From positions 77,901,501 to 77,965,500 of the forward strand of contig CM027378.1 of NCBI GenBank assembly GCA_015680905.1: DNA of 64,000 bases. The letters run 5' to 3'. Shown here in pieces: positions 10,485 through 64,000 of the stretch (position 1 is its first letter; each line of letters begins with the position of its first letter). The notes under the pieces are model-generated. The model did no database searches and was not told the DNA's origin. It worked only from the letters and a program-made list of their open reading frames with translations. The position numbers were made by a program, and so were the translations under genes. Source of the stretch: Coptis chinensis. Taxonomy: Eukaryota > Streptophyta > Magnoliopsida > Ranunculales > Ranunculaceae.

Positions 10485-10489
10485 CTATT
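10485..10489. repeat. Target-site duplication CTATT (left)
   Basis: CTATT occurs immediately outside both ends of the 10490-21188 insertion (right copy 21189-21193). Removing the insertion and one copy gives a continuous kinase frame reading VEIIGKMHHINL, which confirms the borders. Confidence 0.93.
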
Positions 10490-10610
10490 TGTCACACCCC
10501 AAATTTTCAAAAAATTTAAAATAGAGAATTATCTAAGATATAATTATCTCAATCGTCACCCTATTCAATCATCTGAAAACCCAGGATGAAACGAAACCCT
10601 AATAACATAT
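10490..10610 (+). repeat. 121-bp terminal inverted repeat, left
   Basis: Reverse complement of 21068-21188 with about four mismatches near the outer tip and none over the inner ~85 bp. This is far longer than the few-base inverted tips usual for LTRs. Confidence 0.9.
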
Positions 10611-12810
10611 ATCCAATGACTTCACATCATTCAAAACAGTTGCAGGACTATATAATACTACCAATCAATCAATAAACACATGGTTTACTCACTACCGTAT
10701 ACAAGTACTCCTGAACACAACAATACCTATATATCAAAGCTAAATTTTTTGTGCCAGTAACTCAATATACCAAAAGTCTCTGATTAAACAAATAATTTCG
10801 ATCTCAAAGCTCTATATCATTATAGAGAATTAAATACGCAACTAATCTAAACCATAGTAATAAATCAATTATATGAAAATAAGGTTTGGACTACTCACCC
10901 AAAATTAAATTTGCAAAAGAATATCCATATATGCTTCCTTTTCTTCAATCCCTTTTCTTCTTCTTCCCCTTTTTTTTTTCTTTCAATCAAAAATATTCTT
11001 TTTAATGGAGGCTAGGGTTTTGTTTTTGAATAATGAGATTTTTACAGAGGAAATTCGCAGGTATTGTTTATTCAATGTTTTAAGTCTGTTTAAGTTAACA
11101 TATGGGCCTCAAATGTGTCTAAAAACACCTAAGGTCCATACATATATCAATGGGTACATTTTAACAATGTTTTCAAGCCCAAAAATGATTCTAAAATACC
11201 CACACAAGTTCTAACAAACAATTCAAGTAAAAACAATTTTTAAAAAACAACAACAAACAAACAAATTATATAACAAGCTAGACTTCATAATATAATAATT
11301 ATTTTCAATTCAAATAATGTAAATTGTGTTGTTTAAAAATTAGGATTGTTATAATATACACACCTTAAAGGAATCTCGTCCTGAGATTCTAGGAAAAAGT
11401 AGATTAACCAAACAAACATATGTCAAACAATCATTTTTCTAAGTTAACTGGTCATATCTCAACGACTGAACTTTATGTGAATCTAAAACATGCCAGCAAG
11501 ATTAATTACACTTTATTTACAACTTGCACCATAAAGTCATGATAAACAAATATCATAAATGAGATATAAGTGTATACTCAAGTATACACACCTTAAAAGG
11601 AATACACGTATACAATATCATATATTCTTACATGTAGAAATATATAAACACAACTCACATTATGAGAAACACCACTTTTTACAAAAAGTATGAGACCAAA
11701 GTCCAAAACAAAACAAACATGAACCAACAAGGAAGCTCAACACCACAAAGAAGCACTCCTACTACCCATTACCACAATCCGAGGATCACCTAGACCTTCT
11801 CATTCTAGGCTAACCTAAGCTCCGATACCAAACCGTCTGGAATTCGAAGGCCTGTAGAATTAATTATGACGTCTGGAAGTTTGACTGGCAGAAAACAGTG
11901 CGTCAGAAATCAGTTTCTGTGCAATGTGTTCTAATCTAGTTTTTGTATACTTAGAATGAGATTGAGTATTTTTGTAAAATATAAAAAAGTAAGTTCTGTG
12001 TGTTAGCTTTTCAACAAAAAAAGCCTCGATGTATTTGGATACCTGTGGAAAGAGTTGTTCCATTCGGAAGATAGTCCGTCAGAAATCCAATTTACTGAAA
12101 TTAGGATTTTTACCGTTTTCAACCTAAGTTTTCTTTTAGATGGGCTGAGGTTGGGACTTCGAGTTATACATGAAAAAGTATGTCTACATACCCTAGTTTC
12201 TAAGTAATTAAGTTACATGTCATTTGGATGAATGTAGGAAAACTATAGCATTGACAAGTTAGCTAGAAAACCTACCGTGTTATCCTTTATGTGTATGAAC
12301 CTATTTTGGAAAATATGTCTAGTAATGAACTAAGAGTCTCTTAAACTCTTCTTGGGTGTTTTATATAGTGTTTGTAGCAAACTTTAGACTGTAGTTTTAT
12401 TTGGAACCGACATGGTTCATAAGATTATTTTTTTTAGAATCAAAATTAGAGAAATATCCATTTGTGAGTTTTTGGATTTAAAGGTTCATAGTGTATCTCT
12501 AGGTATAAAACTTTACGTATATGATAGTGGGAGTATTTGAAACTTATTGTATGTGATTCTATATAGTATAAATTGTTGTTTTCCTTAAAGATACATACAA
12601 GAATGTTAATATTGGCTTTAAGTATGAGCGAGTTGTTGGACATGATTGGTGATATATTATGATATGATGCATATAATTTCTTACGAAGGAATATGAATAT
12701 AGTTAGCGTGATATGCTGGATATAGTGGTGTGATATGAATATTAGTTAATATTGGTGATATATTATGATATGATGGATATAGTGGTGTAATATAAATGTT
12801 AGTTAATATT
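10611..12810 (-). other. Non-coding body of the outer element (left part)
   Basis: No gene. It contains a perfect 7-bp stem GAATCTC/GAGATTC around GTCCT (11371-11389), followed on the minus strand by CCTTTAAGG. It also contains the minus-strand primer-binding-like site TGGTATCGGAGC at 11817-11830. From about 12648 a roughly 55-bp tandem repeat starting GGTGATATATTATGATATGA runs up to the nested insertion and resumes at 20277-20340. These features fit LTR-retroelement ends rather than protein-coding DNA. Confidence 0.55.
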
Positions 12811-12819
12811 GGTGATATA

Positions 12820-13169
12820 GAGTGAATTAGATTTCCACCCCCAGCAACTTTGCCAATTAAATTTCCACCCCCAGTTCTTTCAATATTAGACTTCCACCCC
12901 TAACTTCACACCAAAATACATTCCATCTGTTTGCTGCATGTGCAAGTACACATCTACCCCTCACCAGGTAAAATGACAAATAAACCCTTTGACTCCCCCA
13001 AGACCAAAACTCATCCAATTACCACGTGGCATCATCACACCCATCTAATCCAATGAACCTAAATTTTTTCCCTAAATGACGTCTACTACCCCTGCCCACC
13101 TAAAATTCCCAACATAACCTCACTCAAGTTTTCTCAATGTCCACGTGTCATCATCCTAACCAAATCTAT
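12820..13169 (+). repeat. MULE terminal inverted repeat, left (350 bp)
   Basis: Reverse complement of 19927-20276 with few differences. It contains three spaced copies of TTTCCACCCC or TTCCACCCC in the first 85 bp, and CACGTG cores further in. Homology stops at AACCAAATCTAT. Confidence 0.92.
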
Positions 13170-13231
13170 TACCACCATGTGGCATCATCCTAACTAACTT
13201 GATCAGTCCTCACGTGGCAGAAATAGCCGTT

Positions 13232-13297
13232 TGGTTCTAAACCACCTTTAAGTGAACGTGACCATTGTTCACTTAGAACAATGGTTCTGAACCACCT
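13232..13297 (+). promoter_or_regulatory. Repeat/hairpin cluster upstream of the zinc-finger gene
   Basis: Two copies of TGGTTCTRAACCACCT (13232-13247 and 13282-13297) flank a hairpin with arms AAGTGAAC (13250-13257) and GTTCACTT (13267-13274). The cluster lies between the left inverted repeat and the ATG at 13349. A regulatory role is inferred only from position and symmetry. Confidence 0.4.
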
Positions 13298-13348
13298 AAA
13301 CTCCTTGCTCAAAGGGAAGAAGAACTGGAAGAAAGAAAAACTGAAAAA

Positions 13349-13873
13349 ATGGGAGGTGGTGGAGAATCAGTCGCGTCAAAAGCAACGTTGGAGAAGGTAT
13401 TTCCACTTTGTACCTATTACTTCTTGTTACTTAGAGTACTTTGTTACTTATTAGTTCTTGTTACTTAAATTTTGTTAAGAGTACTCTTTTGTTAATTTTA
13501 GGATCGTGGTTGCTTCTCATGTGGAAAGCTTGATCATTGGATTCAGAATTGTCCCTGGAACGGCTCTCCTTGCAAGAGATGAGATGTTGGTCGTGTTGTG
13601 AGAACTTCACAACAACCTCATTCATTTGTTGAAAAATTTTTGAGTTGCCCAAACCCAAAGTGCCGAGGCTTTCAATGGATGAAGGATGCTCTGAAGGAGT
13701 CAATCGAGCAACAAACTCAGCAACAACCTAGTAAGTTGTTATTTGTAGATGGGGGGAGCTCTTCTGTAGGGAGTTCTAATGGGAAGTGGAGAGTTTCAAT
13801 TGAAATAGAAATGGATAATTTGTGTGATGGGTTCGAGGCAAATGTGACTGTGAAAGGGAAAGAGAAGGGTTAA
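13349..13873 (+). pseudogene. CCHC plus GRF-type zinc-finger protein of the MULE
   Basis: ATG at 13349; exon 1 13349-13396, intron 13397-13501 (GT...AG, 105 bp), exon 2 13502-13873. The junction is in frame. It encodes about 139 codons. A CCHC knuckle CFSCGKLDHWIQNCPW sits near residues 20-35. A GRF-like finger follows: C near 40, an expected Cys replaced by a stop, then VVRTSQQPHSFVEKFLSCPN and CRGFQW. The C-terminal third is polar. A single in-frame TGA at 13580-13582 occupies the position where GRF fingers carry a Cys, so one base change from TGC/TGT seems to have disabled it. It is transcribed inward from the left end, opposite to the transposase. The role is unknown; GRF and CCHC fingers bind nucleic acid. 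Confidence 0.7.
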
Positions 13874-14592
13874 GTTTGTAGTTTGTTGAGTACTCTAGTT
13901 TGTTAGAGTACTCTTAGTTTTATCAGTATTGTTGCTTTGTTTTGGATGTTTCGTTGTAATCTTGTAAGAGTCATCTTGTAATCCTGCCAAGTTTAAGGTT
14001 TTAGTTTTAGAGTTAGTTTTAAATGTTGAAGTGTAGTTTTAGTTTGGTAATGAAGTACTCATGAAGTTTTAGTTTGTTAATGAAGTTTGGTAATTAAGTT
14101 TTGGAGTTTTGAGTACTCTGAAGTTTTACTCAAGTTTTAGTTATGTTGTAAATGTTCATTCAATTTCAATCAAGAGTACTCTTCAATCAATCAGTCTTCT
14201 CAAATATGTTGAACTGTATGCAAAACAGTATTGCAGAGGAGAGTATGTTTGTCAGTCTTCAATCAATTAGTGTATGTTTGAAAACAGAGGAAAGTAGTAA
14301 CAAAAAGAGTAAAACAGTATTGCAGAGAAAAGAGACTCGAGAAAAAACCAGAGAAAACTAGCACTGACTCTAAACATTGAAACTAGAGTACTCTTGACTC
14401 TTGAAACTAACATAGCAACACTAAACATTGAAAATAATAGGACAAAACATTGGAACTACCATAGGAGAGTACTCACCATAGGACACTAGACACTGACTTG
14501 AACTCCTAACTTGACTCTAAACATAGATCTTCAAACATAGAATGCTTGAACTTCAACCATAGAGCACACCATGAAACAGGACAAACTTGAGA
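13874..14592. other. Region between the convergent MULE genes
   Basis: AT-rich, with many repeats of GAGTACTC and AGTTTTAGTTTG. No coding frame is convincing. It probably holds the 3' ends of the two convergent transcripts. GAGTACTC is a perfect palindrome seen repeatedly from about 13480 to 14475. Confidence 0.5.
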
Positions 14593-15090
14593 TTACTTCT
14601 TCTTGTAGCTGGACTTCTTCTTGCTCATGCAGACTCCAGCTGCTTCTAGTGCCAAGACAATTTCTTTAGCTTGATGTGCAGGTGATTGTAATGGACCAAG
14701 TGATTGTGATGGTCCTGGACCACCTGCTCTTGATGATCGCCTGAGAAGAAGAGGATGTGCTTTTGTTGGTGGTGGTTCTGGTTGTGGTGGTTCTGGTTGT
14801 GATGCAAATTTCAACTCAAAACCCTTGGCTGGTGATGGAGGAGCAAACCCTGGTTTTGGAGCAAAGCCAGGTAGAGGATATGATCCTAATTCATCTTCAC
14901 ATCGACCAAAATAAGAGTCCAACTGTAAATAGCACATGCAATTGCAGTGCTTACAGACTTTGAGACTTAACCTACCATCGTTCTCCATCATCTCCAAGAA
15001 CACCCTCTGATCTTTCTTGTCTTTGAGCAATGACTTGATTTGCTCAAAAGATTGTTCAATTTGTTTGCTATCTAACTCAAATTTATTCAT
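14593..15090 (-). CDS. 165-aa Cys/Pro-containing protein of the MULE, function unknown
   Basis: An uninterrupted frame from ATG at 15090. Residues 1-40 are charged and helix-prone (MNKFELDSKQIEQSFEQIKS). Then comes a compact CKHCNCMCYLQLD...C cluster (about 46-64) that could bind metal. A Pro/Gly-rich middle repeats PGFAPKPGFAPP and QPEPPQPEPP, and a Lys-rich tail ends SKKKSSYKKK, possibly nuclear-targeting. A TATA-like TATAAAG on the minus strand at 15199-15205 lies about 110 bp upstream of the ATG. It sits downstream of the transposase in the same direction, inside the MULE. I do not recognise the family. The clean frame, in contrast to the decayed transposase, suggests a real or recently active gene. 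Confidence 0.55.
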   Translation of the reverse strand: MNKFELDSKQIEQSFEQIKSLLKDKKDQRVFLEMMENDGRLSLKVCKHCNCMCYLQLDSYFGRCEDELGSYPLPGFAPKPGFAPPSPAKGFELKFASQPEPPQPEPPPTKAHPLLLRRSSRAGGPGPSQSLGPLQSPAHQAKEIVLALEAAGVCMSKKKSSYKKK

Positions 15091-15198
15091 TGTTCATGCT
15101 TTCACCATTGTTTGTTGAGTTTGTTTTGTTTGCATTTTTTGTGTGAGAAGATGAGAGATGTGATTGGTGATGTGAGTTGTGCTTGGGGGTGGTTATGC

Positions 15199-15205
15199 CT
15201 TTATA
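15199..15205 (-). promoter_or_regulatory. TATA-like box for the 165-aa ORF
   Basis: TATAAAG on the minus strand, 109 bp upstream of the ATG at 15090. Plausible spacing for a plant core promoter; not otherwise supported. Confidence 0.4.
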
Positions 15206-15810
15206 GAACAGAGATGAACAATGTTTATTCACGAGGCATTGACTAGCCAGCCTAGAAAACAGATGTAAAATTATCACAATAACTCATCATAATATTTCTA
15301 TTTCTATAAAGTACTCATTTCTATATGAGTCTCTTCCTATATAAGCAAACACAATATCACAACTTTCTTTCTTAATATGCTAACTTGCTAACTTAAGAGT
15401 ATAAATCCATAACTGCCAATTTTAAAAGAGTTTTAAAACCCAAGATACGTCATTAATCCATCAGTCTGTAACCAAAATGAGCTATACATTGACACATACC
15501 AAAATGAGTTTTAAAACCCAAGATACACCATGTTTCTGTCCAAAATGAGTAAAAAACAACCAAAACAAATGCAAACATACTAACTTACAAAAGTATCATT
15601 CATCCAACTATACATTGACTGCATTGTTCCAAAAGTATCCCAAAAGTAACTCCAAAAGTAACAAGTCTAAACTGACCACCTTGAACTTTGGTCTAGGTTG
15701 TACAGGCTTCACAGATAGCTTCTCCACTGGCTTGACAGGTGGTGCCTTGAAAGGATCCCTAACACTAGCAGCTACTCACAACTGTTGGTGCCTTGAAAGG
15801 AGCCTTAACA

Positions 15811-18800
15811 CTAGCAATATTCGTTTTCTTTATGATCAGCATGTAAAACACTTGCACTCTTCTTTTTCTTCTTTTTCCCCTCTCCTTGCTTCATGATCAA
15901 GTCACCCATAGCAGCATGTAAAACACTTACACTATTCCTTTGCCCCTCTCCTTGATTCATGATCAAGTCACCCATAGTATGTATGTGCTCTGGTGCTTTG
16001 AAAAAGGTATGTCCATTGCTTTGGCTCTTCCTTGGGTATTCATGTCTTGGTGGTGCCACTCTAACTGGTGCATTGCTTGGTGGTTCTGCTATGGGGTCAC
16101 TTGCAGGAGCATCACTTGCAGGAGCATCACTGCCATTTCTTAATGCCTTGTATTTTGCCTTTTTAATACCACTCTGAGTCTTCCGCACAATTTTTCTACA
16201 AAACAAGACAAAAACAATTTAGATTTGGTATCATTTTAGTAACAATGACTAACCTAGTACAATCACAACTTACTTTTCCCTGTCCATGACAGTGGACTCT
16301 CCTGTCATAGTTCTAGACCTTGTCTAAGGTTTAGGTTTCAGTCTTGATGCTGTTTTCTTTGCATTGCTTCCATTGCTTGATACTTCTGATGCAGCAGGAC
16401 CCTTACATGACCTTGCATTATGCCCTTCTCCTTTACATTTGCTGCAAGTCATTTTCCTCTTTTTATAGACATGCCCATTTTCATTTTCATCCTTAGCCCT
16501 CATTCTTTCCTTTCTAGGCCTTCCAATACCCCTCACCAAAGGAGGTGGTTTCACATGTTTGGTTGGATCCTAAGAAAATAGAACACTTTACAAATTTGTT
16601 TAAAGAACATAAATTTGTTTGAAGAACATTAAACTTGGCAAATATATAAAACTCATATATAAATAAATACTTACAGGTTTAGGCCAATCTTTGACATCTT
16701 CCATGGGTTTGACATTACTTGTGTAAGCTAGCTTGTACTCTGAGACCCAAAAGTAAGAGCTGCAATACTCAACCCACTCAACTCTCCTTGGTAAGAGCAC
16801 TCTCACCGCATGAACACACACAATCCCAGTCATCTGCCATGCCCTACATTCACAAGTGTGGTCCACAATATTGACAGCCCACCTATCACCATGATAATTT
16901 TTCACCACAAAAAGATGATCATCTGAACCTTCAACTGTGTAGTGGGGACATACTTTAATCATCTTGGATATATGTTTATTCACTCTAGGGACCAATCCAT
17001 TTTGATCCCATTCTTTACAAGCCTGTTTTCTCTTGTACCTCAAACTCATCAACAAAATGTGATATTTGTCAAGTAAACGGGTAATTGGAAGGTCTCTCAG
17101 TTCCAAGATTCAACTATTGAAAGACTGAGAAATTACTACTTACTTGTTCAGCTTTAAGTTCCTCAGCAAAATGAGACATATCCCATGTTTCATATTCCTC
17201 CTTTTGCAACCACTTATGTGCTTCAATGTTTTCTTTTTTTTTTCACTTCCATCCACCTCTCAAAGTCTTCCTTTTTATATGCCTTTGAGGCAGCCCATAC
17301 AAGTTGTTCCATATACTCACCCTTGAACAACTTTTTGAAGTTCTTATACATGTGTTTGAAACAAAACCTGTGTTGTGCTCTAGGAAATATGCACTTAACA
17401 GCTTGACTCAAACCCTTTTGCCTCTCAGAAATAAAGGTAACAGGCCAAGGGTGAAGTTCTAGCTTCTCAGCCATGATACTCAAAAACTCACTCCATGATC
17501 AAGCTACACTCGGATCTGCAAATGTATATAGCCAATAGAAATAAACCATTATTTCCATCTAAAGCAACCATGATAAGCACTGCCTCCATATTTCCCTTTA
17601 AAGGAAACAACCATCCAACCCCACTAATGGCCTACAACCAACCTGAAAACCCCTGAATACAAGCATCAAATGAAATACACACTCCTTCAAACTGAAGTGT
17701 GTCAACATCTCTTGAGTATTTTGCAATAGTTGATAGAACATTACTCTCATGAACCTACAAGCAAGCAACAAACATGCAATTATTCAAGATAATCAATTTG
17801 ATGGTTGAAATCACAAAGTGTAAACATTTATAAAGTGTATACCATGTTACATAGCACTGGGATCATGTTGTAGCTTTCCTCATAATCACCATAAATCTGT
17901 TGTAGAGACTTGAATCTTGCATTCCAAGCTGTCCAATAAGTTATATTGACATGAAAAACCCTCATGACTTCTTCTTTTATGAAAACAGGAGTCATGGTTT
18001 TGAAATGAACCTTGGACAAAACAATAGAAGAGTTACTACATTAGTACAATGTAAAAAGACAAATATGAGATAATTAAACTCCACACACTTATAATTAACT
18101 AACCTTCATTTGATCTTGAATTTTTCTGACTACCCAATTTGCATTGGCCATTCTGTTCAACATATCACAATCAGCCTGACAAGTATGTATTGGCTTCAGT
18201 GTATTCAGTCTCATTGTGAATCCATCTTCATCTCTCCTGAAATAAGCTACCCATGGACATTGTACCTTCTTTCTGTCTTCCCCTAAACAAACCACTCTAA
18301 TTCTTAATGGGTCATTCTTGATTAAGTCACCAGCAAACTTATTTCCTATATAAAAATCTTTTATATCATCTCTCAAAACATCAATGTTAGGCCACTCCAT
18401 TCCTACCTCCCAAATTAATGGTTTGTTCACAGACTGCTCACTTCCCTCATCTATATCAATAATCTTCCGAGTCCACCCTCAAGAATGAAGTCAACAAAGT
18501 CTACTTTGTTTGCAATGACATGGTCCTCCTCATCCTCAGAAGAATGTGTACCCTTATACCCCTCATCATCCTCAATCTCATCTATGGGTCTTGGTGGTGG
18601 TGGTGGTGGAGGTGAAAAAGGTGTTGGTGTATGTGAAATGGGTGTTGTGGAATCTGAAATAAAGGATGGACCTTAAATGTGTGGAGTAGATGCATTGGTT
18701 GTATGTGGTGGTGGAGGTAATATATCAGCTTGTGGAGCTAATATATCAATTTGTGGACCTGAACTTAGAGGTGCTATTGGTGGTAAATCCTCATTCCAGT

Positions 18801-19342
18801 CATCCTCTCCATCAGAATCATCTAATGTACCAATACACTTCTTTGAGTAAAAATCATCATTATCTTTAATGCTAGATCGACTTATTCTTAGTGATACTTC
18901 TTCTCCTTGTACTCATTTTCTTTACATTTTTGGTAGGCTTCCTACACTTTGGAGTTGTAACTTGTGGAGTTGGCACAATCATAGTTTCAACTAGCTCTAT
19001 AAGTTCTCCTTCAAGTTCAACAAATACATGACTCCACCCCCTTATATCTTCCTCCATTTTAGCCCACATTTGCATCAAATCATTGTCATTCTTAACATAC
19101 ACCTTCTCACCATTCAAAGTGTACAATATTTCAAATCCTACACTAATATCAAACAAATAGTTCTCCTTTATATCATCTACTAAATCCATAAAATTTATCT
19201 TATCCCCGTCCACATTCCTCATTTTCTCCATAACACCACCTCGATAATTATCTTAGGAATATAGTGAACCATCAGGTGCCTCTTGAAATGTCCCATGATA
19301 ATGAAGGATCAAGTTTCTTTTAGCCAAACAGTCCCTTTCCAT
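15811..19342 (-). pseudogene. MURA-type MULE transposase, decayed multi-exon gene
   Basis: Read in pieces on the minus strand. The N-terminal block (19342-18872) has LILHYHGTFQEAPDGSLYS and a PB1-like part. An acidic/Pro linker follows, then the MuDR DNA-binding-like block (18430-18103; CPWVAYFRRDEDGF...CQADCD). A pre-catalytic block is at 18012-17843. The transposase core runs 17757-17223 (ALDGNNGLF, EKLELHPWPVTFISERQKGL, AQHRFCFKHM). A SWIM finger CECRAWQMTGIVCVHA lies near 16845. A CCHC knuckle CSKCKGEGHNARSC (near 16430) is on exon 16274-16569, and a C-terminal exon is at 15811-16195. Clean splice sites bound the last exons. A TAA after LYS, stops in the core (17640, 17490) and TAG at 16324 break it. 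A segment before ELRDLPITRLLD appears lost. Confidence 0.9.
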
Positions 19343-19926
19343 CTGATTATTATAACAACCAAACAAACAAAATATTTAGCTTACAATACAAGCATGAATC
19401 AAACATATTTATAAAACAAAACATTCCACCATTATACACATTTTCAACTATACAAACAATAACTCATGTTACAATGACAAAAACTTAAATAGATTGTACT
19501 CAAACATAGGTTTTTAACAATAACATTATCATGAAAGTTAAACATTGGACTAAAAGTTTTACATTTCTCACTTGACACACTTTAAACCACCTAAAAACAT
19601 GTTAAAACTGATTAAAGGTGCGAAATTTAAGCAACTTACCTTGAAGTTTTTGTAAGATCACGTGTAAGTAAACCAGCTACCACCTACTTACTTGCTTCAA
19701 ACACTTGCTTTGAGTTCTTGTTCATATGGATTTGTCTAGTAAACTAGATAAAGTTGGGTTTGTCAAGATGGAGCTTTACATCATGTTGGAGTTCACAATG
19801 AAGAAGATAACTTAGGATGATTCAACGATTTTTTTCTCTAGCTTAGCTTAGCTAAGAAGAGTAACATGTGCCACTGAAAATGTTCTCTGATGAGACGTGT
19901 TGTGCATGTTTTGTTCTCCACCATTG

Positions 19927-20276
19927 ATAGATTTGGTTAGGATGATGACACGTGGCCATTAAGAAAACTTGAGTGAGGTTATTTTGGGAATTTTAGGTGG
20001 GCAGGGGTAGTGGACGTCATTTAGGGAAAAAATTTAGGTTCATTGGATTAGATGGGTGTGATGATGCCACATGGCAATTGGATGAGTTTTGGTCTTGGGG
20101 GAGTCAAAGGGTTTATTTGTCATTTTACCTGGTGAGGGGTAGATGTGTACTTGCACATGCAGCAAACAGACGAAATGTATTTTGGTGTGAAGTTAGGGGT
20201 GGAAGTCTAATATTGAAAGAACTAGGGGTGGAAATCTAATTGGCAAAGTTGCTGGGGGTGGAAATCTAATTACCTC
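19927..20276 (-). repeat. MULE terminal inverted repeat, right (350 bp)
   Basis: Reverse complement of 12820-13169; ends ...TAATTACCTC at 20276, followed by the 9-bp duplication GGTGATATA at 20277-20285. The transposase reads inward from this end, so this repeat should hold its promoter. Confidence 0.92.
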
Positions 20277-20285
20277 GGTGATATA

Positions 20286-21067
20286 TTATAATATAATGGA
20301 TATGATGGTGTGACATGAATGTTAATATTGGCGATATATTATGTCAGATTATATATACCCATGATGGTTGCAGTGAGAGTGAAATAGATGTATATTATAA
20401 ATGATTACGTTTGGAAAACCTAACTTTGTTTTGCAGGAGGGTAGGACTTATTAACTTTTTATGTAGAGACGTTGTCCTACCCCTAAGAAGACGTGTTGGC
20501 TAAAAGGTAAGGTGTATCAAACTCATATTTAATTAGGTTATCATATGTGCATTTACTAAGTGGAATGTAAGTGGTATTTATGCTGTGAGTTATTTTGGAA
20601 AGTGGAAATGATGAGTACTGTTATATGAGATTCTTAGAATTGTATATTGGGGGTTAAAATCTTACTTGGGAAGAAACTGTATGCCGTTTTGAGAATACGG
20701 AACTAAATTATCTTCCAAGTTGAAATGATTGTAAAAGTATATTCCTTTATTTGAAATATTGAACATATTGTTTTTTATATTCTTAGTCTTACTTATACCA
20801 ACAAATTCAATTTGTTGACCCATGTTTGCTTTGTTTTGTAATATGGGTGTGTTCTTGGAAACATAGATGGTGGAGTGCAGTGGATGAGGACACCTGATTT
20901 GGATTTGTTTTTGGAGTGTTCTGGTTTAAGTTTTTCTGAAGTGTACGGTTTTGTTTTGAGACAGATGTAATAAAGTTGGTTAGTTTCTTTGTAGTTTAGT
21001 AATGTGATTGAAAGATTGTCCCTATTGGTTTTAAATTTGATCTCATATTTTAATTTCGTGGTTGATA
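20286..21067 (-). other. Non-coding body of the outer element (right part)
   Basis: Continues the ~55-bp GGTGATATATTA repeat for one more unit (to about 20385), then unique AT-rich sequence up to the right 121-bp inverted repeat. No gene. The ORF at 20793-21092 runs into the terminal repeat and has no domain. Confidence 0.5.
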
Positions 21068-21188
21068 ATATGTTATTAGGGTTTCGTTTCATCCTGGGTT
21101 TTCAGATGATTGAATAGGGTGACGATTGAGATAATTATATCTTAGATAATTCCCTATTTTAAATTTTCTTGAAATTTGGGGTGTGACA
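21068..21188 (-). repeat. 121-bp terminal inverted repeat, right
   Basis: Partner of 10490-10610. It ends GGGGTGTGACA at 21188, followed by the target copy CTATT (21189-21193). Confidence 0.9.
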
Positions 21189-21193
21189 CTATT

Positions 21194-23484: not shown

Positions 23485-25330
23485 TTTAAAGATTGGATGC
23501 ACATGCAAGCATTAAACTAATAAACTAATCTTAAAAATTAATTAATGGGCAATCAAAATATTGATACAACTGCATTAAACTAACCTCAAAAAATAATTAA
23601 CGGAAAATCAAAACTTGAATGCAAATACATCAAACTAACACCAACAAATAATTGTCGAGAAATCAGAAACTAGGTGCAAATGCATTGAACTAACCCTCAG
23701 AGATTAAATTACCAGAAAATCGAAAACTAGATGCAACTGTATTGAACTAACCTAAAAAAAAATAACTAAATTGCAAAAAGTAATATTTTCAACCAAAAAC
23801 GATTTTTCTAAAATCCTTACGCCACAAGAATAGTTTCCACACTAATCTCAGGTGAAGTTTAACATAACAAAGTTTCTTTATAGAAAATGATAATGAAACT
23901 ACAAAAGAACAAATGAAAAAATGAATTGAGTTGCTTGAACATTTACTTTATGCATTTGTTAACCACACATGTGACTGAGAAAAAAGGAAAAAAAAAAGTA
24001 AACTAATCATAAAATAAGTAATAGTGTACACAAAAAACAAATAAAATTGTATTGTATGCACTATATATATGGGCCTAATAAATAACGTTGAATCAATTTG
24101 AAGTGCAAAATTTAGTCATAGTTAAGGATTTCAAAAACCATAGGCCACAATAATAACGACATATTCTAATTAAATTTATGAATTTTATAATTTCCAATTT
24201 TAGCAGAATAACGAGATTCAATTAAAACGGACGTTGGCTTAAATAAATTATATAACTATTGATTTAGTTAAAGTAGACGTTGGGCTTAAATAAATTATAT
24301 ACCAAACCAAACCAAAACAAATTACATATGGAAAATTAAATTATACAAAAAATAACATCACAAAATATATAATAGCAACTGGAAAAAAAAAAAAAAAAAA
24401 AAAAAAAAACCCCAATAATAACAAATATTTTCAAATATATATAATGCTACATGAAACTAACGTCAAAGAACAATTAACGAGAAATAGAAAACTATATGCA
24501 AATACATCGAACTAACCTCAAATAATATTTAACAGAAAATCGGAAATTGGATGCACATGCAAGTATTAAACTAATCTTAAAAATTAATTAATAGACAATC
24601 AGAATATTGATACAACTGCATTAAACTAACCTCAAATAATAATTAACAGGGAATCAAAACTTGAATGCAAATACATCAAACTAACACCAACAAATAATTT
24701 TCGGGAAATTGGAAACTGGATGCAAATGCATTGAACTAACCCTCAGAGATTAAATTACCAGGAAATCGAAAACTGGATGCAACTGTATTCAACTAACCTA
24801 AAAAAAATAACTATAAATTGGAAACAGGATGCAAATGCGTGAAACTAATCTTTACAAATAATTAACGAGAAATCGGAAACCGGATGCAACTACATTGAAC
24901 TAATTTCAAAACATAAATTTGATGCAAATGCATTAAACTAACCTCAAAAAATAATTAACGGAAAATCGAAAATTGGATGCAAATTCATTGAACTAACCTC
25001 AAACAATAATCAATGGGAAATCAGAAACTAGATGCAAATACAACCTCATCGAATAATAAACGAGAAATCGGAAACTGGCCGGATGCAAATGTATTAAACT
25101 AATCTCAAAAAATGATTAACGGGAAATCGAAAACTGGATGCAAATACATTATTGAATTGAGCTCGAAGAATAATTATCAGGAAATTGGAAATTGGATGCA
25201 AATGTATTAAACTACAGCAAAGAATAATTAACAAGAAATCAGAAACTGGATCCAACATTGAACTAACCTCAAAAAATAAATAACAGAAAATCATAAACTG
25301 GATGCAAATGCATTGAACTAACCTCAAAAT
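23485..25330 (+). repeat. 55-bp tandem repeat, block 1
   Basis: Unit of about 55 bp: GGATGCAAATGCATTGAACT, then AACCTCAAAGAATAATTAAC, then GGGAAATCGGAAACT. Roughly thirty degenerate copies, with an A run of ~26 at 24383-24409 and a non-repeat stretch around 23770-24440. Each unit has a short palindromic core ATGCAAATGCAT. Confidence 0.85.
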
Positions 25331-25690
25331 ATAGTTGTGTTATATGTTGTGAGAATGTCTTAATAAGTATAGTTTTGCATTTAAAACGGTGTTTATCTTA
25401 TCTTTTTTCATATAATTAGGAACACCTTGCTATTCAAGTAGCTTTAATATGAACTTCATCTTATTAGACAATTTCACAAAACTTCAATCAAACTTCTATT
25501 ATTAAACAACAAATGAAGTTGAAGGGTTTTATCAATGGTGAGTTATTTTTTTTTAGAGAGTACGTGAGGTTTTCATGTTATAAGAAATTTGGATGAGTGA
25601 GCAATATAATATATGTATATAATAGTCATGCATATATAGTTGCATATATTTTACAGAATAATTAATATGACAGGACCCGTTCATAGATAA
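25322..25690 (+). repeat. Internal copy of the Helitron 3' region
   Basis: Aligns along its length with 27343-27700 (shared AAGTATAGTTTTGCATTT, TTCAAGTAGCTTT / TTTAAGTAGCTTT, CAATCAAACTT, TATTATTAAACA). It reaches GACAGGACCCGTTC, the first arm of the terminal hairpin, and then diverges. The second arm and the CTAG end are missing. Confidence 0.8.
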
Positions 25691-25859
25691 TCTCTGAAGA
25701 TCCCACATAGTGAGTCAGGTATATAATTTAAAGAATAATTAACAGAAAATCGGGAACTGGATAATCTTTGATGATCCAATATAGTAAATCAAGCATAATT
25801 TATTTTTATGTCATGTTTGCAAGGACACTACAGATGGATAAGTAGAAAGTTTGTATTAC

Positions 25860-27345
25860 ACACCACATTGGATAATTAAAAAGAAATCAAAAACTGGATT
25901 CAAATATATTGAACTGAGCTCAAAGAGTAATTAACGGAAAATCGAAAACTTTATGCAAATGCAATAAACTAAACTCAAAAAGTAATTAACTAGAAATTAG
26001 AAACTGGATGCAACTGTATTAAACTAACGTCAGAGAATAACTAATGGGAAATTAGAAATTGGATGCAAATCCTTGAAAAATATTTAACGGTAAATCGGAA
26101 ACGGTATGCAAAAATGCATCAAACAAACCTCAAATAATAATTAACGATGAATCAGAAACTGGATGCAAATGCATTAAACTAACCTCAAAATATAATTAAC
26201 AGGAAATCAAAAACCAAATGCAACTACATTGAATAACCTCATAGAATAATTGACGGGAAATCAGAAACTACATGCAAATGCATTAAAATAACCTTAAAGA
26301 ATAGTTAATGGGAAATAAGAAACCGAATGAAATTGCATCGAACTAATTAAAACCTCAAAGCATAAATAATCATAAATCATAAACTAGATGCAGATGTATT
26401 GAACTAACCTCAAAGAGTTATTAATGAAAAATCGAAAACTTGATGCAAATGTAATGAACTAATCTAAAGACTAATTAACGAATATAGAAACATAAAAAAA
26501 TAGATGCAAATGCACTGAACTAACCTCAGTGAATAATTAACGGGAAATCATAAATTAGATGCAACTGCATTGAACAAGCCTCAAAAAATAATTAACGGTA
26601 AATCGAAAACTTGCTGCAAATGCATTAAACTAACCTAAAAAAATAATTAATGGAAAATCAGAAATTGGATGCAACTACATTGAACTAACCTCAAAGAATA
26701 ATTAACAGAAAATCGAAAACTGGATGTAACTGCATTAAACTAAAATCATATATTAACTAACATACCGGGAAATCAGAAATTAGATGCAATATCCTTGATG
26801 AATATTTAACGAAAAATCAAAAACTAGATGCAAATGCATTGAAATAACCTTAAAGAATAGTTAACTAGAAATCAGAAACCGAATGTAACTACATCGAACT
26901 GCCCTCAAAGCATAAATATTCGGAAATTGATTGGAAGCCAGATGCAAACTAACTTCGAAAAATAATTAACGGAAAATCAGAAACTGGATGCAGATGTATT
27001 AAACTAACCTCAAAGAGTAATTAATGTAAAATTGGAACCTTGATGCAAATGCAATTAACTAATCTTAAAGAGTAATTAACGAAATATTGAAAACTAGATG
27101 GAACTGCACTGAATTAACTTTAATGAATAACTAACGGGAAATCGTAAACTTGGTGCAACTGCACTAAACTAACCTCAAATAATAATTAACGGGAAATCAA
27201 AATCTTGATACAACTACATTGAATTAACCTCAAAGAATAATTAATGGAAAATCGGAAACTAGATCCAACTACATACATTGAACTAGCCTCAAAGAATAAT
27301 TAACGTAAAATTAGGAACTTGATGCAAATGCATTAAACTAACCTT
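25860..27345 (+). repeat. 55-bp tandem repeat, block 2
   Basis: Same unit as block 1, about 26 degenerate copies, following a 170-bp transition (25691-25860) with isolated repeat pieces. Units vary by small indels, and no unit is interrupted by unique spacers, which excludes a CRISPR. Confidence 0.85.
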
Positions 27346-27689
27346 GAAACATAGTTGTATTATATATAGGGGGAATATAATATCTCGACAAGTATAGTTT
27401 TGCATTTTAAGTAGTGCTTATTATAATTACTTTATTATAATTGGGAATGCCTTACTATTTAAGTAGCTTTCAATATCATCTTCACATTGAGCATTAAGAT
27501 TCTCACAAAATTTCAATCAAACTTTTATTATTAAACATAACAACAAAAATAAATCGATGAGTTTTACCAAGATTTGGTGCTTTCTTTTGATAGAAAGTGG
27601 TGCAAGAAATTTAAACAAGTGATTAATATAATTTCCATATCTCATAGCTATGAATAGTTGCTACTATTTTTTAAAATAATTTAATATAA

Positions 27690-63039: not shown

Positions 63040-64000
63040 CTCTCATGAGTTTCAACACTCTCAGTGAGCAATATGCTTTCATAAGCTAACCCGCTCTCTG
63101 CGAGCAGCATGCTCTCTTGAGCTTACATGCTCCATAGCCTTTCCAATTCTCACTACTTGAGGACCTATAATTCTAAGATCAACTCAATGAGAATGCTCTC
63201 AGTGACCAATACGCTTTCATAAGCTAACACACTCTCCGCGAGCAGCACGCTCTCTTGAGCTTACAAGCTCCATAGCCTCTCTAATTCTCACTAGTTGAGG
63301 ACCTATAATTCTAGGATTAACTCAGTGAGAACGCTCTCAGTGAGCAATACACTTTTATAAGCTAACACGTTCTTCGCGAGCAGCACGCTCTCTTGAGCTT
63401 ACAGGCTCCATATCCTCTCCAATTCTCACTAGTTGAGGACCTATAATTCTAGGATCAACTCAGTGAGAATGCTTTCAGTGAGCAATACGCTTTCATAAGC
63501 TAACACGCTCTCCGCGAGCAGCACGCTCTCTTGAGCTTATAGGCTCCAGAGCCTCTCCAACTCTCACTAGTCAAGGACCTATAATTCTAGGATCAACTCA
63601 GTGAGAACGCTCTCAGTGAACAATACAATTTCATAAGCTAACACGTTCTCCGCGAGCAGCACGCTCTCTTGAGCTTACATGCTCCACAGCCTCTCTAATT
63701 CTCACTAGTTGAGGACCTATAATTCTAGGATCAACTAAGTGAGAACGCTCTCAGTGAGCAATACGCTTTCATAAGCTAACATGCTCTCCGTGAGTAGCAC
63801 GCTCTCTTGAGCTTATAAGCTCCAGAGCCTCTCCAATCCTCATTAGTTCATTACCTATAATTTTAGGATCAGCTCAGTGAGCACGTTCTCAGCGAACCCT
63901 ACGCTATATTAGGCTAGCACACTCACTCGAGCTACCAGGCTTCACAGCCTATACAGTTCTTACAAGTGGACAACCCACAAATGAGAACGTTATCTACGAG
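63040..64000 (+). repeat. 138-bp tandem repeat in the 3' untranslated region
   Basis: The word CAATACGCTTTCATAAGCTA or a variant recurs with its C at 63069, 63207, 63345, 63483, 63621 and 63759 and a weaker match at 63897, i.e. exactly every 138 bp. About 6.9 copies are visible and the array continues past the window. Each unit contains two to three variants of CTCTC(A/T)GTGAGC/CTCCGCGAGCA and GAGCTTA(C/T)A(A/G)GCTC, so it has inner symmetry. Confidence 0.93.

What the first reader, a model, noticed from the sequence alone, without database searches (positions are those of the whole stretch)
10485..21193. Retroelement-like insertion with 121-bp inverted ends, proven by the restored kinase frame
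The ends (TG...CA) and the 5-bp duplication CTATT say LTR retroelement, as do the minus-strand TGGTATCGGAGC site and the GAATCTC/GAGATTC palindrome. Yet the two tips are 121-bp near-perfect inverted repeats, which LTR elements do not have. Removing the element and one CTATT gives VEIIGKMHHINL in the receptor kinase, so the borders are exact. Either an LTR with unusually long internal symmetry, a rearranged non-autonomous retroelement, or a DNA transposon type with 5-bp duplications not usually named in plants.
Basis: partly seen in the sequence, partly recalled or inferred. Interest (0 to 1): 0.7.

Follow-up and report, generated by a model that had tools for sequence, protein, structure and literature searches.

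The report
Head-to-head LTR retrotransposon with matching ends
A plant jumping element that normally carries two end repeats pointing the same way is here fused to part of a relative pointing the other way, so both outer tips are the same end of the repeat; this explains its mirror-image tips without needing a new kind of transposon.

Summary
Observation confirmed: arms 10490-10610/21068-21188 (117 of 121 identical), CTATT on both sides, local kinase reading restored. It is not a TIR transposon. The 121 bp is the 3' (U5) end of the LTR of a high-copy retroelement family. All 20 other PBS-side matches scored read PBS-spacer|TGTCACACCCC, i.e. a 5' LTR. Eight of 20 fetched tip loci are single LTR units with perfect 5-bp duplications; L033 has three direct LTRs inside GTCCC. 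In the window a complete 864-bp LTR and 480-bp internal region (minus strand) meet, at the LTR/PBS border, the last ~1.9 kb of a longer LTR of the same family (plus strand); both outer ends are U5 ends. A 7.5-kb Mutator-like element lies inside. 1 of 58 matches, the window itself, spans the junction. Most likely a chimeric cDNA with two U5 ends (failed second strand transfer or end joining) integrated once; the cDNA-stage origin is inferred. Two other loci, L048 and L036, also carry an inverted U5 beside the PBS; L048 is an internal inversion with ordinary outer ends, L036 is unresolved. New variant of known template-switching chimeras.

The parts
10485..10489 (.). left copy of the 5-bp target-site duplication CTATT
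10490..11353 (-). complete short LTR, 864 bp, minus orientation: starts TATAACAATCC at 11353, ends GGGGTGTGACA at 10490
   Evidence: L012 and L022, two LTR units with their own 5-bp duplications, start exactly at 11353 (position 488 of the 1,351-base query)
10490..10610 (-). left 121-bp arm = 3' (U5) end of that LTR
11354..11833 (-). internal region, 480 bp, no coding content seen; contains a GGACGAGATTCC-type stretch next to the LTR start (11371-11389) that resembles a polypurine-tract region (recalled likeness)
   Evidence: copies in L029-L034
11819..11833 (-). primer-binding-site-like TGGTATCGGAGC with the GTT spacer; exact inner border of the lost 5' LTR
   Evidence: 20 of 20 other places read spacer then TGTCACACCCC-like
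11834..11842 (+). junction; CGTCTGGAA, a 9-mer repeated at 11870-11878, possibly copied filler (alternative: mutated U5 end TGTC followed by TGGA)
11843..12819 (+). inner piece of a long LTR of the same family, plus orientation, its 5' part missing
12820..20276 (-). nested Mutator-like element with MuDR-like and SWIM transposase fragments on the minus strand; not part of the retroelement
   Evidence: 9-bp duplication GGTGATATA
20286..21188 (+). remainder of that long LTR to its U5 end GGGGTGTGACA
21068..21188 (+). right 121-bp arm = U5 end of the long LTR
21189..21193 (.). right copy of the target-site duplication CTATT

Best explanation
The insertion is a rearranged, non-coding copy of a plant LTR retrotransposon family. 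SHOWN: the 121-bp arm is the U5 end of the family's LTR; the left third is a complete LTR plus internal region up to and including the PBS and its spacer; where every other PBS-side copy examined has a 5' LTR, this copy has the last ~1.9 kb of a long LTR of the same family in the opposite orientation; so both outer ends are U5 ends, inside one 5-bp duplication. The arms are 121 bp because the left LTR is a short form that keeps only the last 121 bp in common with the long one. INFERRED: two related RNAs were reverse transcribed together. Minus-strand cDNA of the short element ran to the PBS end, failed the second strand transfer, and its 3' end was extended on, or end-joined to, minus-strand cDNA of a long LTR whose 5' end is the U5 terminus. 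The product had a U5 end on each side; integrase cut it after CA at both ends and inserted it once, giving CTATT and TG..CA instead of the family's TA..CA. Later a Mutator-like element inserted.
For: LTR unit: 8 of 20 fetched tip loci have TATAACA..GTGTGACA with perfect, different 5-bp duplications, 2 more with one mismatch, 10 unresolved. PBS side: 20 of 20 other places read spacer|TGTCACACCCC-like. Direct LTRs: L033, three LTRs and two internal regions inside GTCCC, 4 of 9 tips are followed by a PBS. Junction: left-type matches stop at 11832-11838, right-type start at 11842 or later, 1 of 58 spans it. The break falls on the internal/LTR border, a natural stop in reverse transcription (recalled biology). 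Border 9-mer repeated 36 nt downstream; 0.6% of positions in 10490-12700 have such a repeat within 60 nt. Identical outer 5-mers and precise tips at both ends. Arms carry different alleles at four sites, so two parent LTRs.
Against: The cDNA step is not observed. If CGTC is a mutated TGTC, the break lies 4 nt inside U5 and the filler argument weakens. The 10 resolved or nearly resolved long/short tip units are solo; no complete two-LTR element with the right-hand tip type was found (nearest L032, 12 differences in 121). The arms are identical over positions 37-121 while 0 of 190 pairs among the 20 loci are, which could mean later conversion between the arms. L048 shows that plain internal inversions also occur in this family. 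The 9-mer repeat was noticed after the fact. Two searches aimed at further cases did not complete.
Confidence: 0.7

Rival explanations
1. Two insertions and a deletion. An ordinary minus-oriented element inserted at CTATT; a long LTR element then inserted in plus orientation into the same 5 bp at its right edge; a deletion from the PBS border into the middle of the second LTR removed everything between.
For: Gives the same end structure and flanks. Nested copies are common here: L012 lies in a copia-type gene region, and deletions between short repeats occur in this family.
Against: Needs a second insertion into exactly the same five bases and a deletion edge exactly at the LTR/internal border. 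No trace of a third CTATT at the junction.
Confidence: 0.14
2. Post-insertion inversion of the 5' LTR side, followed by loss of the first part of the inverted LTR.
For: L048: a 6,008-bp insertion with CATCC on both sides whose interior is inverted, with an inverted U5 next to the PBS. L036 also has an inverted U5 beside the PBS.
Against: In L048 one outer end is still the ordinary LTR start TATAACA; in the window neither is. The inversion would have to break exactly at the element's outermost base beside CTATT.
Confidence: 0.1
3. A DNA transposon family, or a self-propagating retroelement type, with 121-bp terminal inverted repeats and 5-bp duplications.
For: The window copy alone has that form.
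Against: The arm occurs once in each of 20 fetched 10-kb stretches; resolved units have unlike ends; 13 of 15 close tip pairs among the 100 listed tips are direct; tips are followed by a PBS in 4 of 9 places.
Confidence: 0.03
4. Assembly error joining two unrelated copies.
For: High-copy repeat; no reads could be examined.
Against: Matching CTATT on both sides, local reading of the kinase restored, a clean nested element with its own 9-bp duplication.
Confidence: 0.03

Closest known systems
Template-switching complexes of LTR retrotransposons (Sabot and Schulman 2007, PMC1950507; whole main text read)
   Same: Chimeric insertion of two related elements inside one 5-bp duplication, ascribed to template switching in reverse transcription and ordinary integration. 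L033 and probably L051-L053 here look like that paper's direct three-LTR form.
   Different: Those have three LTRs in the same direction and similar outer LTRs. Here the halves are head to head, the outer ends are both U5 ends and the 5' LTR is missing.
Non-autonomous plant LTR retroelements without coding region (TRIM, LARD; names recalled, one search was a listing only)
   Same: LTRs, PBS, 5-bp duplications, short internal region without coding content.
   Different: LTRs of about 0.5 to 4.7 kb with an internal region of only about 0.5 kb fit neither size class as I recall them.
LTR retroelements with non-TG..CA ends (PMC5659011, start of abstract seen)
   Same: Family LTR has TA..CA ends.
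   Different: The window copy shows TG..CA because both outer ends are U5 ends.
DIRS elements (recalled; PMC3266345 seen only as a listing)
   Same: Retroelement with inverted terminal repeats.
   Different: DIRS elements, as recalled, use a tyrosine recombinase and leave no duplication; here there is a 5-bp duplication.

Membership tests
LTR retrotransposon | direct LTRs at both ends in the family | tested here: met
   L033; L049/L050, L051-L053, L054/L055
LTR retrotransposon | direct LTRs at both ends in this copy | tested here: not met
   no direct pair in the window; the LTR pieces are inverted
LTR retrotransposon | PBS directly inside the 5' LTR | tested here: met
   20 of 20 other places; in the window the PBS is present, the 5' LTR beside it is replaced
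LTR retrotransposon | 5-bp target-site duplication | tested here: met
   window CTATT; 8 of 20 loci perfect, 2 with one mismatch, 10 unresolved
LTR retrotransposon | polypurine tract before the 3' LTR | tested here: inconclusive
   CTTTAAGGTGTGTAT before the LTR start is only partly purine
LTR retrotransposon | gag-pol coding region | tested here: not met
   480-bp internal region; no frame of 110 codons or more there; the copy is non-autonomous
Ty3/gypsy (chromovirus) lineage | reverse transcriptase phylogeny | not testable with these tools
   no coding partner was identified; the GGACGAGATTCC likeness is recalled only
TIR DNA transposon with 5-bp duplications | inverted tips in other copies | tested here: not met
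   121-bp arm once per stretch in 20 of 20 fetched stretches. The 17-nt motif in inverted sense: two weak matches (3 mismatches) in L014, and one (1 mismatch) beyond the tip in L016
DIRS retroelement | no target-site duplication | tested here: not met
   CTATT duplication
Template-switching complex (PMC1950507) | single duplication around two fused elements | tested here: met
   CTATT outside, junction at 11834-11842
Template-switching complex (PMC1950507) | same orientation with a shared internal LTR and highly similar outer LTRs | tested here: not met
   inverted; only 121 bp shared
Mutator-like element (nested, 12820-20276) | long terminal inverted repeats, 9-bp duplication, MuDR-type transposase | tested here: met
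   SWIM E 2.3e-8; MuDR DNA-binding E 7.5e-5 but 22.7 bits against a cut-off of 25

The most novel reading that the evidence does not exclude
This locus records one integration of a cDNA with two U5 ends: an integrase of a plant retroelement accepted U5 + U5 instead of U3 + U5 and still made a proper 5-bp duplication. Failed second strand transfers at the PBS may make such head-to-head copies repeatedly in this family (L036, unresolved, may be another), creating loci with inverted LTR ends that could be transcribed into hairpins and so feed silencing of the whole family.
Probability: 0.45. Interest if true: 0.55.

Novelty: new variant of a known kind. Interest (0 to 1): 0.4.

Why it matters
Such copies look like inverted-repeat transposons to a reader or an annotation program, but are failed products of reverse transcription that were still integrated. 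They give a way to read from genome sequence where strand transfer fails and which LTR end pairs an integrase accepts, and inverted LTR ends are a proposed source of silencing RNA (for Arabidopsis EVD, PMC11624286, passages seen, where the authors had not tested it).

Tried and rejected
A TIR DNA transposon was rejected on the copies examined. A symmetric LTR was rejected: ends differ, TATAACA against TGTCACA. An independent solo insertion of the left LTR was rejected by reading: the five bases inside it are not CTATT. Splicing as the origin of the short LTR was rejected by reading: the cut is at arm position 121/122 beside an AAACCCTA(A)TAACAT-like repeat, not at the GGTGAGT site. L048 first looked like a second U5/U5 insertion; its other end with CATCC proved to be an ordinary LTR start, so it is an internal inversion. 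L036 could not be resolved: no matching GTAAC end in 13.5 kb. L058 is two LTR ends facing each other, not this structure. Comparing ORFs of the 20 stretches gave mainly copia-type and host-like frames and no coding partner. Paper searches (listings, at most 40 rows each) showed no described U5/U5 head-to-head plant insertion; the library is open-access PMC only, so absence from print is not claimed.

In one search only the first 100 of 1,224 tips were listed. One search returned nothing because of a wrong blastn option of mine and was rerun.
Full report
What is there. The insertion 10490-21188 is flanked by CTATT and tipped by 121-bp inverted arms, 117 of 121 identical. The local kinase reading is restored across the joined flanks, although that gene shows other stops and frame changes nearby. 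Inside lies a Mutator-like element, 12820-20276, with inverted repeats of about 350 bp, the 9-bp duplication GGTGATATA and transposase fragments (SWIM 33.8 bits above cut-off; MuDR DNA-binding 22.7 bits, just below its cut-off of 25). Without it the outer element is 3,233 bp: 864 LTR, 480 internal, 9 junction, 1,880 second LTR piece.

Other copies. The window lies in a 936-Mb assembly (116 contigs; organism not named). In each of the 20 the arm occurs once by blastn and faces unlike flanks. Eight of the 20 start TATAACA and end GTGTGACA inside a perfect 5-bp duplication, each different (L009 ATCTA, L012 ATTTG, L015 GAGTC, L017 GGAAT, L020 TGTTC, L022 CGTTA, L023 CTTGC, L027 ACAAT; spans 506 to 7,142 bp); two more match with one mismatch (L016, L028); ten are unresolved. 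No strict PBS motif lies in these units (a decayed PBS is not excluded), so they look like solo LTRs.

Which end is the arm. L012 and L022 start exactly at window 11353 in the minus sense, so 10490-11353 is a complete LTR of 864 bp whose 3' end is the left arm. A query across the junction (11700-11960) gave 58 matches, 40 of 1,576 candidates scored: the window itself; 20 left-type matches that stop at 11832-11838; 37 right-type matches that start at 11842 or later. All 20 left-type places were fetched. Each reads the PBS, a 3-nt spacer and a TGTCACACCCC-like U5 end, within 3 substitutions; in one of the 20, L036, that U5 end turns back on itself after about 37 bases. L033 shows the family's ordinary logic, three LTRs in the same direction and two internal regions between GTCCC duplications, units 90-91% alike. 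On contig C1, tips of L049, L052, L053 and L054 are followed by a PBS and those of L050, L051, L055, L056 and L057 are not. Among the 100 listed exact tips, 13 of 15 pairs within 15 kb are direct, one faces inward (L058), one outward (L048).

The right part of the window aligns in plus orientation with the last ~1.9 kb of long LTRs. So the window copy reads, on the minus strand: inverted end piece of a long LTR, PBS, internal region, complete short LTR. Both outer ends are U5 ends. That is why it shows TG..CA while the family has TA..CA, and why the arms are inverted. The arms stop at 121 bp because in the short LTR the U5 end is followed directly by the U3-side part: in L030 and L031 that U3-side part continues instead into other LTR sequence, and an AAACCCTA(A)TAACAT-like word stands at both edges, which suggests a deletion between short repeats. 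L009 and L014 share the short arrangement.

How it arose. The break is at the border between internal region and 5' LTR. The spacer AAC is complete, then comes CGTCTGGAA, then long-LTR sequence. CGTCTGGAA recurs 36 nt further on; such a nearby repeat occurs at 0.6% of positions in 10490-12700 and 1.8% of the window, but I noticed it after the fact, and CGTC could also be a mutated TGTC. From established knowledge of reverse transcription (recalled), minus-strand cDNA pauses at the PBS before the second transfer, and tRNA-primed minus strands start at the U5 terminus. Extending the paused strand on, or joining it to, another minus-strand cDNA yields a linear DNA with a U5 end on each side. The alternatives, a second insertion into the same five bases plus deletion or an inversion breaking at the outermost base, need extra coincidences. 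I give about 0.95 to 'rearranged LTR retroelement, not a TIR transposon' and 0.7 to the cDNA-stage account.

Results against or beside this reading. L048 has an inverted U5 end beside the PBS, but its insertion (6,008 bp, CATCC on both sides) keeps an ordinary LTR start at the other end, so it is an internal inversion. L036 has a 72-bp U5 palindrome beside the PBS and GTAAC outside; its far end was not found in 13.5 kb. The arms are identical over positions 37-121, which no pair among the 20 loci is (0 of 190), so conversion between them is possible; at positions 18, 19, 21 and 36 they differ, which suggests two parents. No full two-LTR element with the right-hand tip type was resolved.

Comparison. 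Chimeric insertions inside one duplication are known as template-switching complexes (PMC1950507, whole main text read), but in direct orientation. The head-to-head U5/U5 form is a variant that my seven paper searches did not turn up; that is not proof of absence from print.

Noticed in passing
window 12820-20276: Nested Mutator-like element with ~350-bp inverted repeats and a 9-bp duplication GGTGATATA; transposase broken into pieces on the minus strand.
   Followed up: partly
L033 848-4074 (C1:73968000-73973500, reversed): LTR-internal-LTR-internal-LTR arrangement inside GTCCC duplications, like published template-switching complexes.
   Followed up: partly
L051-L053 (C1:40007070-40018040): Three tips spaced 5,333 and 5,340 bp on one strand, two followed by a PBS and one by other sequence: probably another three-LTR complex.
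   Followed up: partly
L059 + L048 (C1:16372700-16381400): 6,008-bp insertion with CATCC on both sides whose interior is inverted, with a 71-bp palindrome of U5 ends beside the PBS.
   Followed up: yes
L036/L060/L061 (C9:77343100-77356600): 72-bp palindrome of U5 ends between the PBS and the flank GTAAC; far end of the element not found.
   Followed up: partly
L010 1353-3057 and L020 2218-3170: Tandem units ending AAATTYGGGCTGTGACA, 75-77% alike in the tip: a diverged sister LTR type.
   Followed up: no
window 23492-27356 and 63054-63924: Large arrays of diverged tandem repeats by self-comparison, not studied.
   Followed up: no
window 12709-12819 and 20277-20343: Short repeats with a period of about 57 bp inside the long-LTR part, around the nested element's target site.
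   Followed up: no
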